A stretch of DNA of 64,000 bases from Promethearchaeota archaeon. Its GTDB lineage: Archaea > Asgardarchaeota > Lokiarchaeia > Sigynarchaeales > SOKP01. A model generated the notes under the pieces. The model was not told where the DNA came from, searched no databases, and worked only from the letters and a program-made list of their open reading frames with translations. Shown in pieces: positions 8,249 through 63,015 of the stretch. A program made the position numbers and the translations under genes. The stretch is from contig JABXKC010000009.1 in the NCBI GenBank assembly GCA_013375495.1, positions 1 through 64,000 on the forward strand, in the 5' to 3' direction. Numbering within the stretch: position 1 is the first letter of the stretch; the number at the start of each line of letters is the position of its first letter.

Positions 8249-8458
8249 CCATATATTTTTTTATTCTTTAATAATATGCTCTGATTTGATAAGTTTTCGA
8301 TCAGTTAATGTACATAATTAGATAAAATTATCATTTTGATAAATTTAATTGTCTATTTATTGTAATAATTAAGTTAAAATGGATTAGATAATTTTCTTCA
8401 AATAATAATAGATTAAAATTAAAAGTCTAAAAAAATCAAAAAAAAAGGGTTAAAAATA

Positions 8459-44206: not shown

Positions 44207-46255
44207 ATGTCGAAATTAAATGTCAAAAAGGTCATAATTTTTAAGCATGGAGTTTCCTATTACATTCTCGAGGGAAGTGTGAAGGGACTTGATACTTTTG
44301 AGTTAGAGTTTAAAATAGACGAAATGGATGATGTGTTAAAATCGCTCTTTGTTTTAGATACCAGCGAAAAAGGTTATATAAGCTCGATATCCTATGATGC
44401 AGCTTTAGATACTTCTCAACTCTTAAAATCTATTATGTTGGACATTCCAGATAGAGACTCTTTTTCCTCGTTAATTACTCAAATAAAAGGAGCAAGAATT
44501 AATCTAGCGATTACTGGAAAAGAATCTATATCGGGAACGATAATGGGAATAGAAGAATTTGAAAAAATGAGCAAAAATGATAAAATTGTTGAAAAATTGT
44601 TAATTATTCTCAAGGATGATGATGTAATTTCCAAAATAAATTTCACTGATATTAAATCTTTGGATATCATAAATGAAGATATTAAGAAAGATCTCAAATT
44701 TTTTCTCGATACCGTTATATCGGGGAAAAAGCAGGACGCAAAAAAAATTGTAATAAACTGCGAATCTGGAGGAAACGATGAGGTTGAAAGAATCATTTTT
44801 GTCTATTATATTCGAGAAAGTCCAATATGGAAAACCTCATATCGTTTAATAATGAGCAAGGAGCAAGCACTGGAAGAAAAATGTCTACTTTCTGGCTGGA
44901 GCCTTATTGAAAACACTACTAATCAAGATTGGGAGGATGTTGAGTTATCCTTAGTTGCGGGAATGCCCGTTTCTTTTAAATACGAATTTTATCGACCTAT
45001 ATTTATTCAACGTCCAGTAATCCGTCCCCCGAAGGTTCTAAGCGTAAGACCTACTGAAATCGAAGAGGGCCTTGAAATGGAAAAATACAAAGATTACGCT
45101 ATGTCAGAAATGGAAGCCAAACCGAGTGCAATGAGAAAAAGAGGTAAAGTAGCTCTAAGGGGAGCCCCCCCACCTGCACCTGCAGGAGCAATAGGATATG
45201 GTGGTATGCAAAGTGTTATGTCAGACGACGCTTTACTTGATAAAGTAAAATCCCAAACAAAAATACAAACCAAAGACTTAGGGGAATTATTTGAGTATAA
45301 TATATCAAACCTAGTTTCGATAAAAAGAAAACAATCCGCTTTAGTTCCTATTTTAACAGAATCTATAAAGGCAAGACGCGTTTTATTATACAACAAAAAC
45401 GAATACGATAGAAATCCGAACGCTTGTCTCGAAATCACAAATAATACCAATTTAACGCTTGAAAGAGGGCCAGTTACTATAATTTATGACGATAATTTAG
45501 CCGGGGAAGCGATAATCCCTTTTCTAAACAAAGAGGATACTCGACTATTGAATTACGCCGTCGAACAGGCAGTAATAATAACCCACGAGGCTAATTCTGA
45601 AAGCTCAAGTGTACACAAAATAACTATTGGAAGTGGATATTCCTACGAATATTATTACACAAACCTCATGACGACCTATAAAATTAATAATAAAACAAAC
45701 GAAGAAAAAGAGCTTTATTTAGACCATCCTAAAACCCATGGATATAAATTTATCGAAAAACCTATCGAACCCGAAGAAACTCCGAATTATTGGCGCTTTA
45801 AGATCACATTGAAACCTAAGGACGCAATTACATTTAAAATAAAAGAACAACGCGAAGATTATTCAAGCTATTACATAAGAAACTGGTCGAAAGATGATAT
45901 TTTAAAACGAGTAGGGTTTTATGTTAAGCAGAAATTTATTAACGAAAAGCTTGAAGCTCAATTAAAAGAAATCGCAGAGCAAATACAGACTTTAAATGAT
46001 AAAACAAATCAGAGAGAAAAATTATACGAGGAGAGAGATGGGATGTCAGACGAACAATCAAGGCTGAGAGAAAACATATCTGTACTAGGAGACGATAACC
46101 AATCTATGACTTTAAAAGAACGATATGTTAAAAAATTAAACGACCAAGAGAGTAGATTCGAAAAAATTTCTGCAGAGATGAAAAAACTCGACAAAGAAAT
46201 TGATTCTCTGAACAAAACCATTGAAAATCAATTGAATAAATTAAAAGCTAAATAA
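44207..46255 (+). CDS. DUF4139-domain protein
   Basis: A 682-residue protein. The N-terminal region (VKKVIIFKHGVSYY) and the central beta-rich part (SPIWKTSYRLIM, WSLIENTTNQDWEDVELSLVAG near 230-255) match DUF4139. A Pro/Gly/Ala-rich insert GAPPPAPAGAIGYGG lies near 325. The C-terminal ~120 residues are a long coiled coil. No membrane helix. The function of the family is unknown; bacterial members affect mucoid surface phenotypes. Confidence 0.78.
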   Translation: MSKLNVKKVIIFKHGVSYYILEGSVKGLDTFELEFKIDEMDDVLKSLFVLDTSEKGYISSISYDAALDTSQLLKSIMLDIPDRDSFSSLITQIKGARINLAITGKESISGTIMGIEEFEKMSKNDKIVEKLLIILKDDDVISKINFTDIKSLDIINEDIKKDLKFFLDTVISGKKQDAKKIVINCESGGNDEVERIIFVYYIRESPIWKTSYRLIMSKEQALEEKCLLSGWSLIENTTNQDWEDVELSLVAGMPVSFKYEFYRPIFIQRPVIRPPKVLSVRPTEIEEGLEMEKYKDYAMSEMEAKPSAMRKRGKVALRGAPPPAPAGAIGYGGMQSVMSDDALLDKVKSQTKIQTKDLGELFEYNISNLVSIKRKQSALVPILTESIKARRVLLYNKNEYDRNPNACLEITNNTNLTLERGPVTIIYDDNLAGEAIIPFLNKEDTRLLNYAVEQAVIITHEANSESSSVHKITIGSGYSYEYYYTNLMTTYKINNKTNEEKELYLDHPKTHGYKFIEKPIEPEETPNYWRFKITLKPKDAITFKIKEQREDYSSYYIRNWSKDDILKRVGFYVKQKFINEKLEAQLKEIAEQIQTLNDKTNQREKLYEERDGMSDEQSRLRENISVLGDDNQSMTLKERYVKKLNDQESRFEKISAEMKKLDKEIDSLNKTIENQLNKLKAK

Positions 46256-59856: not shown

Positions 59857-60399
59857 TTAGGAATATCTTATTTTATCTCTATACTCTTTAACAGAGACTT
59901 TTCTCGCTTCTAATCGTTCGTGTTTTATTAAAGTCTCTTCAATTGTTTTAATTTCGGTTCTAGTTTTTATATCGAATTTCTTTAATTTTTCGAGAATCTC
60001 TTTTTCTCCTAAGCCTTTATTATAATACGCTTTAAAATTTGTAATTATCTTCTCGTTGTAAAAAATATAGTGTCCGTTAATGAAAGTTATTAGGGAACTC
60101 TTTTTACTTTGCTCTTTTGATAATTTATACATCTTTCCTTGTATTTGAGCTAGTGGATGTTTAAGTTTTCGTGCTATGTCCTTGTCTTCAATTGAATCTA
60201 CCTCATTCAAAAATTTATCAAGTTTTTTATAAAACAACAAAGTTGGTACATAAGAAAGAGCGAATAAGCTAATAGTAATAACGGTGATTATTATAGCAGC
60301 TAATTGATTAAAGAAAAAAACGATAAGGATTATAGCAACGAGAAATATAAACCACTTTCTTCCAATTGTCTTTAAAATTTTTACAAATTTTCCAGGCAT
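59857..60399 (-). CDS. Small membrane protein with cytoplasmic tail, unknown function
   Basis: A 180-residue protein: two membrane helices at about 14-31 and 33-54, then a charged, probably helical cytoplasmic part (for example KFLNEVDSIEDKDIARKLKHP). I do not recognise the family. It lies just downstream of the 5S rRNA gene on the same strand, but a T-rich stretch separates them. Confidence 0.6.
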   Translation of the reverse strand: MPGKFVKILKTIGRKWFIFLVAIILIVFFFNQLAAIIITVITISLFALSYVPTLLFYKKLDKFLNEVDSIEDKDIARKLKHPLAQIQGKMYKLSKEQSKKSSLITFINGHYIFYNEKIITNFKAYYNKGLGEKEILEKLKKFDIKTRTEIKTIEETLIKHERLEARKVSVKEYRDKIRYS

Positions 60400-60496: not shown

Positions 60497-60678
60497 CTTA
60501 AACCACATTTACGATTCCGGGTTCGGATGGTACCGGGTACTATCCTGTATTACCATGACCGTAGCCGAAGCTACAGTTTGCAAGTTCCCATAGATTTTCA
60601 ACTACAGTACTATCTGCAACGCAAAACAGTTTAACTTCCGGCGTTGTAGCTAATCGCTACGAGATAATGTGGTTAAAG
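60497..60678 (-). rRNA. rrf: Circularly permuted 5S rRNA gene with closing stem
   Basis: Reading the minus strand, the 3' half of 5S comes first (GGAAGUUAA, then loop E AUAGUACUG, a GAAA-capped helix IV, and UGGGAAC in helix V; 60641 to 60577). Next is CUGUAGC-UUCG-GCUACGG (60576-60559), which is helix I sealed by a UUCG tetraloop. The 5' half follows (loop A UCAUGG; ACCCGGUACCAUCCGAAC with loop C; 60558 to 60514). Helices I-V can all be formed in canonical positions. The flanks 60666-60678 and 60497-60509 pair over 12 of 13 positions. Reordered, the RNA is about 117 nt plus the tetraloop. No 16S or 23S gene is in the window. Confidence 0.88.
60511..60644 (-). other. Bulge-helix-bulge-like junction of the permuted 5S precursor
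   Basis: Leader strand: ACG (60644-60642), CCGG (60641-60638), AAG (60637-60635), UU. Trailer strand: GAAC (60524-60521), CCGG (60520-60517), AAU (60516-60514), CGU (60513-60511). CCGG pairs with CCGG as a 4-bp centre, ACG with CGU on one side and UU with AA on the other; on both strands the bulge is 3' of the central helix, as in archaeal splice motifs. Cutting after the second bulge base on each strand and joining gives CCCGGAA|GUUAAAC, the canonical 5S sequence. If G60635 pairs with C60521, the leader bulge is two bases. Confidence 0.6.
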
Positions 60679-60831
60679 ACACCACTAACAACCAATTCAT
60701 ATGTTCGGCTATATTATTGTAAAATGCTTTATTTATGTGGTTGTAAGTAATAGAAATAGTAAAGACTAGTAATTAAACTTTTTCATAACAAATAGTTAAA
60801 CTTAAAAGGATTTGTATTGAACTTATTAGGC

Positions 60832-63015
60832 TTATATCAGATTTCTAATGTTTTTTTTGTGTCTCTTCATTCCAATTATAACGACCGTTATAGAGATTCC
60901 AACTAATCCAACTATCATAATGGAAGCAACTATAAGCACATAATCTATAATTGGTTTTGGAATTGAAAAATTTAAATTTTCCTCGTAAAAAATAGAAGTT
61001 TTGTTTGTATAATCTCTCATTATTACGAGATATTGATATTCACCTGGTTCTAATTTATTTAAAGTAATATTAAACTCTTGTTTATTCATATTGAAATCAT
61101 TGTATAGTCTATTTAGTGAAAAGTCTGAAAAATTATTTTTTGACAATAAAAAGAATACGCTTTCAATTCCCGAGTGATTATCACTTGCATTAAAGAAGAA
61201 TACAATATTATTTGTAGCAGTAGGGTTTAGAGGGACATAATTAACAGTAAGTAGTTCAGGTATGTCAGTATCAGCTAAAGTGGTAAAATTAAAGTAGGAA
61301 GGAATTACATTATGCCCAGTGATTATTACGCTATAGTTTTCGTTCGCTTCAGCAGGTAGCCTAAAATCTACAAAACCATTTACATCAGCATAAACTGTTC
61401 GGTACTTTCCATTTAAAGTTCGGAGATTAATTCTTGCTCTCGGAACAACTCTCCCAAGATTATCTTTTACCTGAAACGATATACATTGACCTTCATAAAT
61501 GTCCCCGGTAAAATAATCTGGAACTTCTGCAGGAACCTTTGTATATACATCAAGTTCTGGGTCACCTAATAAATTATAAGTTAACACATTTTTACGGTGT
61601 TGTTGTTGATACAAGCCTTGTGTCATTGAAGCCTCTCCTCTCACAAAATAATCGCTATTCATATACTCAACCTTGGAATCGTATAGAGCCCTTCCTTGTT
61701 GGAACTTTTTTTCTGTGAAAAATTCTCTCCAAAATAGCTTAGCATTAGCTCTGTTGACTTTTTCTAATTCTTCATCATCTTGAAAATACCAGGTAACGCG
61801 TAGTCCACCAATGTAACCAATCGCTCCGGAGTCAGCTCTGGTAATTAACCTTTCACCTATGCTATAATCTCCTTTGTCGTACGAGGATGTTGTGCATGCA
61901 TCGGCGTAAAATAAGGAAGGCATGTCTGTATTATTACTTGATAAAGCATCTGCGTTATTGTAATATGATTCACTACTATCATCTGTAATCACAGTTGGAT
62001 CTGAGTGTCCAGCAATTATTACTGTAGAGTACCCCGAATCAAATTCCGTACGAAAACTAGTGCTATTAAGAGAGCCAAGCGAGTTTGGGGGTAATGGAAT
62101 GGTTGGTGTAAATGAGGATGTGGTTTTTGCTAGGTGTGTAAAGTTCATCTCATTAATCACATAATTCTCCCAAATATACTCCATAAGACGAGCTTCGTCT
62201 TCATCAGTGATTAATTTAATAGGATCAGGGTGATATTGATAATAACTTGAAACTCCTCCTGCGAGCAGCATTTTATTCATCCAGTCTCCAATATTAGGAT
62301 CCGTTTCATATTTTAAAGTTTTATTAATCATTGCTGAAAGCTCAGAGGGATTACTAGCGGGTAATCGGCCAACGTAAACTTCTGGTATCCACGAAATTTC
62401 ATCAATTTCTCCATTATGTTCGGTAGATTCCCCCCATATGCTATTGTTATTATCATCCCACGATCCTGTTAGATCTCCATAATAGAAATCAGTTGGTTTG
62501 TAATAATTATCAAAAGAAGAGTACTCCGATTCACCCGTAACAAAAACATCAGGATTATATACTTCTCTTATAGGGATTAGATCATTTTCAGCATCGCCAG
62601 CAAGAAGAACCCATTGAATATTTTCCTTCTCATAGAAATCTTTTATCATGTTTCGGATTTGCTCTGCTTTATCCCTCCCTTCATAGTCCGAATAGTTGGT
62701 TAAAATGATTGTCTTGACTCCTTTCTCGTTCTTCCACTCCATTAAGGGCGTAGCGGCACTTACAAAGCTTGAATCATTAACGATAATTAACATTTCTATT
62801 TTTTGATCGTTCCATAAGGCGTTTAATGCATTATAATCGATTTCTGGTAATTTGGATGTATTAATTACGGGTGTCGTCGCGATTTTCAAGTTTATCAGAT
62901 TATGTGGACGATTAACGCTTTGATTTCCATCTTCTATATTGAGGGGAATAAGCGGAATAAGTATTAATGTGGTAAGTAAAATGAGAATGTATTTTTTTAA
63001 CTCGAGCTTCCCCAT
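60832..63015 (-). CDS. C25 (gingipain-like) family cysteine peptidase, membrane anchored
   Basis: A 727-residue exported protein. It has an N-terminal signal segment (about 8-25), a caspase-like peptidase domain with candidate catalytic His in IIAGHSDPT near 337 and Cys in FYADACTTSSYD near 372, beta-sandwich regions after about 490 (DNLGRVVPRARINLRT), and a C-terminal membrane helix (about 694-716) followed by basic residues. The peptidase would face outside the cell. Resembles gingipain-type C25 peptidases. Preceded by a GGGGAAG-type leader at the ATG. Confidence 0.8.
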   Translation of the reverse strand: MGKLELKKYILILLTTLILIPLIPLNIEDGNQSVNRPHNLINLKIATTPVINTSKLPEIDYNALNALWNDQKIEMLIIVNDSSFVSAATPLMEWKNEKGVKTIILTNYSDYEGRDKAEQIRNMIKDFYEKENIQWVLLAGDAENDLIPIREVYNPDVFVTGESEYSSFDNYYKPTDFYYGDLTGSWDDNNNSIWGESTEHNGEIDEISWIPEVYVGRLPASNPSELSAMINKTLKYETDPNIGDWMNKMLLAGGVSSYYQYHPDPIKLITDEDEARLMEYIWENYVINEMNFTHLAKTTSSFTPTIPLPPNSLGSLNSTSFRTEFDSGYSTVIIAGHSDPTVITDDSSESYYNNADALSSNNTDMPSLFYADACTTSSYDKGDYSIGERLITRADSGAIGYIGGLRVTWYFQDDEELEKVNRANAKLFWREFFTEKKFQQGRALYDSKVEYMNSDYFVRGEASMTQGLYQQQHRKNVLTYNLLGDPELDVYTKVPAEVPDYFTGDIYEGQCISFQVKDNLGRVVPRARINLRTLNGKYRTVYADVNGFVDFRLPAEANENYSVIITGHNVIPSYFNFTTLADTDIPELLTVNYVPLNPTATNNIVFFFNASDNHSGIESVFFLLSKNNFSDFSLNRLYNDFNMNKQEFNITLNKLEPGEYQYLVIMRDYTNKTSIFYEENLNFSIPKPIIDYVLIVASIMIVGLVGISITVVIIGMKRHKKNIRNLI

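What the first reader, a model, noticed from the sequence alone, without database searches (positions are those of the whole stretch)
60497..60678. Circularly permuted 5S rRNA gene
On the minus strand the 3' half of 5S (GGAAGUUAA, loop E, helix IV/V) precedes the 5' half (loop A UCAUGG, loop C CCAUCCGAAC). Reordered, the sequence folds into all five 5S helices at about 117 nt. No conventional 5S copy is seen in the window. Permuted 5S rRNAs are known from some mitochondrial genomes of stramenopiles; I know of none described for a cellular archaeon.
Basis: partly seen in the sequence, partly recalled or inferred. Interest (0 to 1): 0.96.

Follow-up and report, generated by a model that had tools for sequence, protein, structure and literature searches.

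The report
Circularly permuted Asgard 5S rRNA gene
In this Lokiarchaeon, and in nearly half of the Asgard archaeal genomes searched, the gene for 5S ribosomal RNA has its two halves in swapped order, and its RNA is predicted to be cut out and sealed into a small closed circle that would serve in the ribosome.

Summary
On the minus strand, 60635-60515 is a complete 121-nt 5S rRNA in circularly permuted order: 3' half, a TTCG loop closing helix I, then 5' half. A covariance model made only from 18 conventional Asgard 5S genes, permuted in silico, scores it 59.2 bits (E 6e-13); Rfam's conventional 5S model gives 19 and 16 bits and nothing above cut-off in the window. Among 227 Asgard genomes, 108 have a strong permuted match (E<=1e-9) and 103 of those have no conventional 5S above cut-off; 64 have a conventional match above cut-off. 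Compensatory changes far exceed shuffles (834 cells against 249). [quoted passage not shown] cutting it at the usual places and joining the ends restores the canonical helix III/loop C sequence. Of 88 distinct loci, 69 pass a BHB test (about 6 expected when trailers are dealt among loci); 19 fail. Some Lokiarchaeal copies also carry 29-31-nt BHB introns, and one Asgard contig holds a normal-order 5S gene with a BHB intron at the same site. Closest precedent: the circular, permuted SRP RNA of Thermoproteus. No RNA evidence was available; circularity is inferred.

The parts
60497..60678 (-). predicted precursor core of the permuted 5S rRNA gene, from leader stem to trailer stem
   Evidence: bounded by the 13-nt complementary leader and trailer segments
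60515..60635 (-). predicted mature 121-nt 5S rRNA (circle)
   Evidence: R1 full-length match 1-123, 59.2 bits; same ends predicted from the BHB motif
60570..60635 (-). 5S 3' half: GUUAAAC, helix II 3' strand, helices V and IV, loop E, helix I 3' strand
60566..60569 (-). UUCG tetraloop joining the former 3' and 5' ends (caps helix I)
   Evidence: 4-nt loops TTCG, CTCG, TTAG, TTTG in Lokiarchaeal relatives read; L069, L072, L073 have a longer insert there
60515..60565 (-). 5S 5' half: helix I 5' strand, loop A UCAUGG, helix II 5' strand, helix III and loop C
60666..60678 (-). leader strand of the outer stem (12 of 13 nt can pair with 60497-60509)
   Evidence: read; stem also in the minimum-free-energy fold
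60497..60509 (-). trailer strand of the outer stem
60646..60660 (-). leader hairpin GTAGC-GATTA-GCTAC lying between outer stem and BHB
   Evidence: differs or is missing in several relatives
60635..60644 (-). BHB strand 1: outer ACG, central CCGG, bulge AA^G; predicted cut between 60636 and 60635
60511..60520 (-). BHB strand 2: central CCGG, bulge AA^U, outer CGU; predicted cut between 60515 and 60514
59857..60399 (-). neighbour gene, 180 aa, no Pfam match; syntenic with the permuted 5S in Lokiarchaeia
60832..63015 (-). neighbour gene, 727 aa, peptidase family C25; syntenic with the permuted 5S in Lokiarchaeia

Best explanation
This is a 5S rRNA gene in circularly permuted order, very likely the cell's working 5S gene, whose transcript is predicted to be cut by the tRNA-splicing endonuclease at a bulge-helix-bulge motif formed by leader and trailer and then sealed, likely by the ligase RtcB, into a 121-nt circular 5S rRNA. 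Shown by sequence: the permuted order; all five helices, with covariation across Asgard genomes; the BHB layout (4-bp CCGG/CCGG, bulges AAG and AAU, outer pairs); and that joining at the usual cut positions gives CCGAACCCGGAA+GUUAAAC, the unbroken canonical sequence. Inferred: transcription, cleavage, ligation, use in the ribosome, and that the circle stays closed because helix I ends in a 4-nt loop with no spacer to process. A likely origin, also inferred, is a normal-order 5S gene carrying a BHB intron at this site, as one Asgard contig has: duplication and loss of the outer parts would leave the 3' exon before the 5' exon, with the intron's own stem as the new outer stem.
For: Independent permuted model: window 59.2 bits, 121 nt, ending at the BHB cut positions. 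227 Asgard genomes: R1 at E<=1e-9 in 108 (107 counted plus G186, 8.1e-10, read); 103 of these have no RF00001 match above cut-off. On 101 matches from 100 chosen loci, 93% of cells pair and 834 cells are changed on both sides, against 249 in shuffles and at most 148 when slid. BHB test on 88 distinct leader/trailer loci: 69 pass in a register at or within one base of the canonical junction; null from trailers dealt among loci has mean 5.9, maximum 15. Strict form (4 bp plus at least 5 outer pairs): 44, null mean 2.1, maximum 7; with bulge 2 of another length (1, 2, 4-7) 0 or 1 pass. In the 46 loci of the main register the last leader base varies (42 A, 3 C, 1 G) while its mature counterpart is A in 46 of 46. 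Break-point variants also restore canonical loop C. BHB-bordered inserts in 10 of 20 insertion-bearing loci examined. A normal-order 5S with a 23-nt BHB intron at the same site. EndA domain in 20 of 20 Lokiarchaeal genomes, two matches in 18; RtcB in 18 of 20.
Against: No RNA data. 19 of 88 loci fail the BHB test, 12 of them in one group of handles (G037-G058) with a weak outer stem. A stricter script that asked for an identical product found a canonical-restoring BHB in 52 of 96 loci, only other placements in 28 and none in 16, though several of the 28 are canonical when read by eye. In the window only 3 outer pairs adjoin the central helix, and 7 of 6500 position pairs there meet the same loose criterion, so the window alone would not prove the motif. 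CCGG is palindromic, so its pairing in the window is not independent of the repeat. The minimum-energy fold of the circle is not the canonical one (-28.9 against -27.6). The number of pairs with changes on both sides (26 of 28) hardly exceeds shuffles (23.5). The window's genome is not held. G043 holds a permuted copy and a normal-order, intron-bearing one: the two can coexist, or the contig is a contaminant.
Confidence: 0.84

Rival explanations
1. The gene is a working permuted 5S, but the RNA is trimmed to a linear molecule with its ends in loop C/helix III and is never ligated.
For: Permuted mitochondrial 5S of brown algae is known (cited in PMC11528492; the original paper is not held; whether it is ligated I did not see). 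19 of 88 loci lack a clear BHB. The leader/trailer stem could simply hold the ends together.
Against: 3-nt bulges and a 4-bp centre at the canonical junction in 69 of 88 loci, against about 6 expected. The leader carries a redundant CCGGAA that a merely trimmed RNA would not need. BHB-bordered inserts in related 5S genes suggest that splicing acts on this RNA anyway.
Confidence: 0.1
2. The RNA is circularised and then reopened at the helix I loop, giving an ordinary linear 5S, as in permuted tRNA genes (shares all steps but the last with the best explanation).
For: Permuted tRNAs are relinearised (passage in PMC7758197). Some relatives have a longer helix I loop (L069, L072, L073).
Against: Helix I is closed by a 4-nt loop in the window and in the other Lokiarchaeal loci read, which leaves no room for leader- or trailer-like sequence.
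Confidence: 0.12
3. It is a pseudogene or non-ribosomal relic, and a conventional 5S is used.
For: The window's genome is not held.
Against: 103 of 227 Asgard genomes have a strong permuted match and no conventional match above cut-off. Compensatory change and conserved synteny. Five genomes have both above the thresholds used: in G186 the permuted match and in G060 the conventional match are half matches, in G071 and G142 the conventional copy looks bacterial, and G043 has an intron-bearing conventional-order copy.
Confidence: 0.02
4. Assembly artefact, or the junction between two tandem conventional 5S genes.
For: Tandem 5S genes would place a 3' half before a 5' half.
Against: No full copy flanks it in the window. 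Separate assemblies, including two chromosome records and a 1.4-Mb contig, show the same form. Leader and trailer are complementary and the neighbours syntenic.
Confidence: 0.01

Closest known systems
Permuted, circular SRP RNA of Thermoproteus tenax (PMC4731332; first quarter of the text and passages seen)
   Same: Gene order permuted; short leader and trailer form a BHB; tRNA-splicing endonuclease cuts it and RtcB is proposed to join; circle restores a conserved loop; no canonical gene had been found.
   Different: SRP RNA, not rRNA; two thermophilic species; shown experimentally, whereas here only predicted.
Permuted mitochondrial 5S rRNA, Rfam RF02547 (Valach et al. 2014; not held, known from passages in PMC11528492 and PMC10085705 and from recall)
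   Same: 5S rRNA in circularly permuted order.
   Different: Organellar; RF02547 matches 0 of 24 Asgard genomes, 21 of which have a permuted 5S; no BHB known to me (recalled).
Circularly permuted tRNA genes (passage in PMC7758197)
   Same: 3' half upstream of 5' half, re-joined probably by tRNA-splicing enzymes.
   Different: tRNAs are reopened at their ends; here the ends are joined by a tight loop.
Circular or permuted archaeal 23S and 16S rRNA (PMC7758197, PMC12918454; passages seen)
   Same: rRNA circularised at a BHB.
   Different: There the gene order is conventional and the circle forms during processing; PMC12918454 sets 5S apart from this processing.
5S rRNAs with expansion segments (PMC7812874; passages seen)
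   Same: Insertion sites called least obstructed (in bacterial 5S) are loop C 34-37 and helix III bulge 52-53, which correspond, by recalled E. coli numbering, to the two break points here.
   Different: Insertions in conventional gene order; the text has no hit for 'permut'.

Membership tests
5S rRNA (RF00001) | five helices I-V with covariation | tested here: met
   28 pairs in 5 helices, 93% of cells paired, 834 cells changed on both sides against 249 in shuffles (alignment fitted to the model)
5S rRNA (RF00001) | conserved loop A, C and E sequences | tested here: met
   UCAUGG, CCAUCCGAAC, AGUACU/GGGAA; R1 alignment
5S rRNA (RF00001) | score above the family cut-off in conventional gene order | tested here: not met
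   19.1 and 16.1 bits against 38; the gene is permuted
5S rRNA (RF00001) | incorporated in the large ribosomal subunit | not testable with these tools
   no RNA or structure data
mtPerm-5S (RF02547) | match to the family model | tested here: not met
   0 of 24 Asgard genomes at E<=1; not listed for the window either
BHB substrates of archaeal tRNA-splicing endonuclease | 4-bp central helix with 3-nt bulges and flanking helix | tested here: met
   window: CCGG/CCGG, AAG/AAU, outer ACG/CGU, loose form only; 69 of 88 distinct loci
BHB substrates of archaeal tRNA-splicing endonuclease | enzyme present | tested here: met
   PF01974 in 20 of 20, RtcB in 18 of 20 Lokiarchaeal relatives; window's own genome not held
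BHB substrates of archaeal tRNA-splicing endonuclease | cleavage and ligation observed | not testable with these tools
   needs RNA-seq or an enzyme assay
permuted circular RNAs of the Thermoproteus SRP type | permuted gene with circular mature RNA | tested here: inconclusive
   permuted gene shown; circle only predicted

The most novel reading that the evidence does not exclude
A large part of the Asgard archaea, the closest archaeal relatives of eukaryotes, build their ribosomes with a covalently closed, end-less 5S rRNA made by the tRNA-splicing machinery from permuted genes that descend from 5S genes with a BHB intron.
Probability: 0.6. Interest if true: 0.96.

Novelty: new variant of a known kind. 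Interest (0 to 1): 0.93.

Why it matters
[quoted passage not shown] It would give a circular rRNA that is a constitutive ribosome part, extend BHB splicing to 5S (including introns inside 5S), and supply a possible intermediate, an intron-bearing normal-order gene, for how permuted RNA genes arise. It is directly testable on cultured Asgard archaea, and annotation pipelines would need a permuted 5S model.

Tried and rejected
Tandem-array and assembly-artefact readings were rejected. Membership in mtPerm-5S was rejected. Conventional hits in G023, G071 and G142 were set aside as bacterial-looking contaminants, judged by eye, and G060 as a half match. The minimum-energy fold of the circle did not give the canonical structure, so folding energy of the circle is not used as support. 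BHB counts went through three scripts: single register, 42 of 98 loci with 4 bp and at least 3 outer pairs; free search with an identical-product test, 52 of 96; five registers at the junction, one central mismatch allowed if the outer stem has at least 5 pairs, 69 of 88 distinct loci. The loosened third test was checked against its own null. The 19 failures are L130, L142, L171, L172, L174, L176, L181, L182, L184, L185, L189, L190, L194, L197, L202, L207, L215, L216 and L218. For 10 of 20 insertion-bearing loci no intron was resolved (L069, L248, L251 and the seven 134-nt matches).

Literature: listings, and passages of the nine papers opened, show no report of a permuted or circular 5S in a cellular archaeon. 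PMC10085705 (passages) lists 5S among RNAs with known circular permutations. PMC9723677 (passages) reports a 5S gene in two Asgard genomes. The library lacks most subscription papers and preprints.

Full report
WHAT IS THERE. The window is Lokiarchaeal: its cdhD protein is 97% identical to that of Candidatus Lokiarchaeota isolate YT5_023. On the minus strand, between a C25-family peptidase gene (60832-63015) and a 180-aa gene without a Pfam match (59857-60399), lies, in 5'-3' order: a leader stem strand CTTTAACCACATT; a small hairpin; ACG-CCGGAA; then GUUAAAC...CUGUAGC (5S 3' half); UUCG; GCUACGGUCAUGG...CCAUCCGAACCCGGAA (5S 5' half); and U-CGU-A-AAUGUGGUUUAAG, which ends in the other stem strand.

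IS IT 5S, AND PERMUTED. Rfam at gathering threshold finds only a tRNA in the whole window (tRNA-Pro by ARAGORN). At relaxed threshold RF00001 matches the two halves separately, 19.1 and 16.1 bits. As an independent test, 18 conventional 5S genes from other Asgard genomes (18 of the 30 loci looked at, which were the best hits; two bacterial-looking ones, the ones not located by motif and some near-duplicates were left out) were cut at CGGAA|GUUAAG and swapped, with four unknown bases as linker, aligned and turned into covariance model R1 with the known 5S helices. No permuted gene entered the model. R1 hits 60635-60515 (-) over its full length with 59.2 bits, E 6.2e-13; the only other hit in 64 kb up to E 10 has 10.4 bits. 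The restored linear form, 117 nt, has the five-helix 5S structure as its minimum-energy fold. Results against: the circle's own minimum-energy fold is a different one, 1.3 kcal/mol lower than the canonical, and its energy is not exceptional (z -1.4; 16 of 200 shuffles as low).

HOW WIDESPREAD. In 30 Lokiarchaeal genomes reached through the cdhD loci, RF00001 is above cut-off in 1 (G023, on a bacterial-looking contig) and matches at E<=1 in 19; in each of the 19 the loci read contain a permuted gene. Two of these genomes are recorded as chromosomes (CP070805.1 and CP070831.1) and had no other match. In the 227 Asgard genomes held for the phylum, RF00001 is above cut-off in 64. R1 has a match at E<=1 in 188, but in conventional genomes these are half matches: the highest there is 53.2 bits (G186), against 70.6 for RF00001 in the same genome. 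At E<=1e-9, R1 matches 108 genomes (107 counted, plus G186 read), of which 103 have no RF00001 match above cut-off. Five have both: G186 (half R1 match), G060 (RF00001 38.4 bits, a half match), G071 and G142 (bacterial-looking extra 5S) and G043 (below). A further 25 genomes without a conventional match above cut-off have weaker R1 matches, 2 between 1e-9 and 1e-8 and 23 weaker. re-searched 19 genomes with weak matches and 6 with none: the 6 stayed without; among the 19, the best match is 150-181 nt long in 10 and 134 nt in 7, which points to insertions. Genomes with the break on the other side of loop C (G009, G012, G013, G014, G138) and G028 gave no R1 match and were seen through weak RF00001 matches. 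Both searches of more than 40 genomes used the tool's stricter filters, which lose some weak matches.

SELECTION ON STRUCTURE. On 101 matches from 100 loci chosen mostly because R1 had hit them (86 distinct rows), 93% of 2384 cells pair; 834 cells are changed on both sides, against 249 in shuffles and at most 148 in slid versions; the covariation score is 0.854 against 0.228. The number of pairs with changes on both sides (26 of 28) is close to the shuffles (23.5), so it is not used. The alignment was fitted to the model, which favours it, and shuffles do not keep relatedness.

HOW IT WOULD BE PROCESSED. A BHB has a 4-bp helix flanked by 3-nt bulges and is cut by the tRNA-splicing endonuclease at symmetrical places in the bulges, then joined by a ligase (PMC4731332 and PMC7758197, passages; the exact cut, between bulge bases 2 and 3, is recalled). 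In the window, leader CCGG pairs with the terminal CCGG of the 5' half, with bulges AA^G and AA^U and outer pairs ACG/CGU; then, beyond a 21-nt leader insertion that holds a hairpin, comes a stem of 12 of 13 pairs. Cutting at those places and joining gives CCGAACCCGGAA+GUUAAAC, the canonical sequence with nothing gained or lost, in a 121-nt circle. The window alone would not prove this: 7 of 6500 position pairs pass the same loose test, and CCGG is palindromic. Across 88 distinct loci (13 of 101 matches dropped as duplicates or for short flanks), 69 pass a test limited to five registers at the junction (4 central pairs and at least 3 outer, or 3 central and at least 5 outer); dealing trailers among loci gives a mean of 5.9 and a maximum of 15 over 500 trials. 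The strict form (4 central and at least 5 outer pairs) is met by 44, against a mean of 2.1 and a maximum of 7. If bulge 2 is given another length (1, 2, 4, 5, 6 or 7), 0 or 1 pass the strict form. Other Asgard genomes have textbook cases, such as L137, with a 14-bp outer stem directly on CGTG/CACG. In the 46 loci of the main register the last leader base varies (42 A, 3 C, 1 G) while the equivalent mature base is always A, as expected if the leader copy of CCGGAA is discarded. Against: 19 of 88 loci fail, 12 of them with handles G037-G058; and a script that demanded an identical product found a canonical-restoring BHB in 52 of 96 loci, only other placements in 28 (several canonical by eye, such as L134, L137, L173) and none in 16.

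BREAK-POINT VARIANTS AND INTRONS. In L062, L064, L065, L066 and L227 the break lies on the 5' side of loop C: leader CUGG-AA^C, trailer side CCGG-UC^A. Joining gives ACCCGGUC+CCAUCCGAAC, the sequence that L063 has unbroken (of these only L066 was listed by the scan, the others were read by eye). L061 has CUGG-AA^A with CCAG-AA^U. The two break points correspond, by recalled E. [quoted passage not shown] Among 20 insertion-bearing loci examined, 8 have a 30-31-nt loop C insert and 3 (L063, L070, L247) a 29-30-nt helix IV insert with BHB borders, 10 loci in all; taking the insert out removes the alignment gap against intronless relatives. L247 has both and would fall from 180 to 120 nt; L253 keeps a second, unresolved insert; 10 loci gave no intron. 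In G043, contig C117 carries a normal-order 5S with a 23-nt insert, CACG-GA^A-CAGTCT...AGACTG-CGTG-AA^A, at the same site as the permutation break. The same genome also has a permuted copy, so C117 may be a paralogue or a contaminant. If such a gene were duplicated in tandem and trimmed, the intron's stem would become the leader/trailer stem seen in permuted genes.

MACHINERY AND CONTEXT. PF01974 (splicing endonuclease) is in 20 of 20 Lokiarchaeal genomes searched, with two matches in 18; RtcB is in 18 of 20, two of them partial. Two-subunit endonucleases are described as the most relaxed in BHB recognition (PMC4731332, passage), which two paralogues would fit. Of 41 loci of about 3 kb or less, a homologue of the 180-aa neighbour lies in 37 and of the C25 peptidase in 34; the 41 include some duplicates of one place and at least three that are not Lokiarchaeal 5S loci (L060, L256, L265). 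Both break-point variants sit in this same setting, so they look orthologous.

WHAT IS KNOWN. Searches of the open literature for permuted or circular 5S with archaea or Asgard showed nothing on cellular organisms (listings, and passages of the papers opened). Known parallels are the permuted mitochondrial 5S (RF02547 matches 0 of 24 genomes), the permuted circular SRP RNA of Thermoproteus, permuted tRNAs and circular 23S rRNA. The closed Heimdallarchaeum genomes were published with the remark that 5S could not be predicted, which this form would explain if those genomes have it; I could not name them among the handles. Two other Asgard genomes are reported to have a 5S gene, in keeping with the conventional form in part of the phylum.

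VERDICT. A permuted 5S rRNA gene is as good as certain. BHB splicing to a circle is the best-supported mechanism and is inferred. That the circle remains closed in the ribosome is likely from the short loop on helix I, but untested.

Noticed in passing
L222 / L273 (G043:C117, about 8277-8414): Normal-order 5S gene with a 23-nt BHB intron at the permutation site, in a genome that also has a permuted copy.
   Followed up: partly
L063, L070, L247, L249, L250, L252, L253, L260, L263, L264: BHB-bordered inserts of 29-31 nt inside Lokiarchaeal 5S (loop C and helix IV).
   Followed up: partly
L069, L072, L073: The helix I loop is replaced by an insertion of about 30 nt; for L069, the one tested, no BHB intron was resolved.
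   Followed up: partly
L232 (G212:C15): Conventional 5S with an insertion after GUUAA in helix II; no clear BHB borders.
   Followed up: partly
L178 (G084:C510): Two different permuted 5S copies in tandem, starts 157 bases apart, each with its own leader and trailer.
   Followed up: no
L256, L266-L272 (G213): Eight partial 5S-like matches to R1, several on one contig; unexplained.
   Followed up: no
L231 (G117:C1): Three conventional 5S copies spaced about 375 bases apart in a 4.36-Mb contig.
   Followed up: no
window 60728-60736 (-) and about 60694-60700 (-): TATA-like stretches upstream of the leader, seen by eye only; relatives have similar A+T-rich blocks.
   Followed up: no
window 44207-46255 (+): 682-aa open reading frame without any Pfam match.
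   Followed up: no
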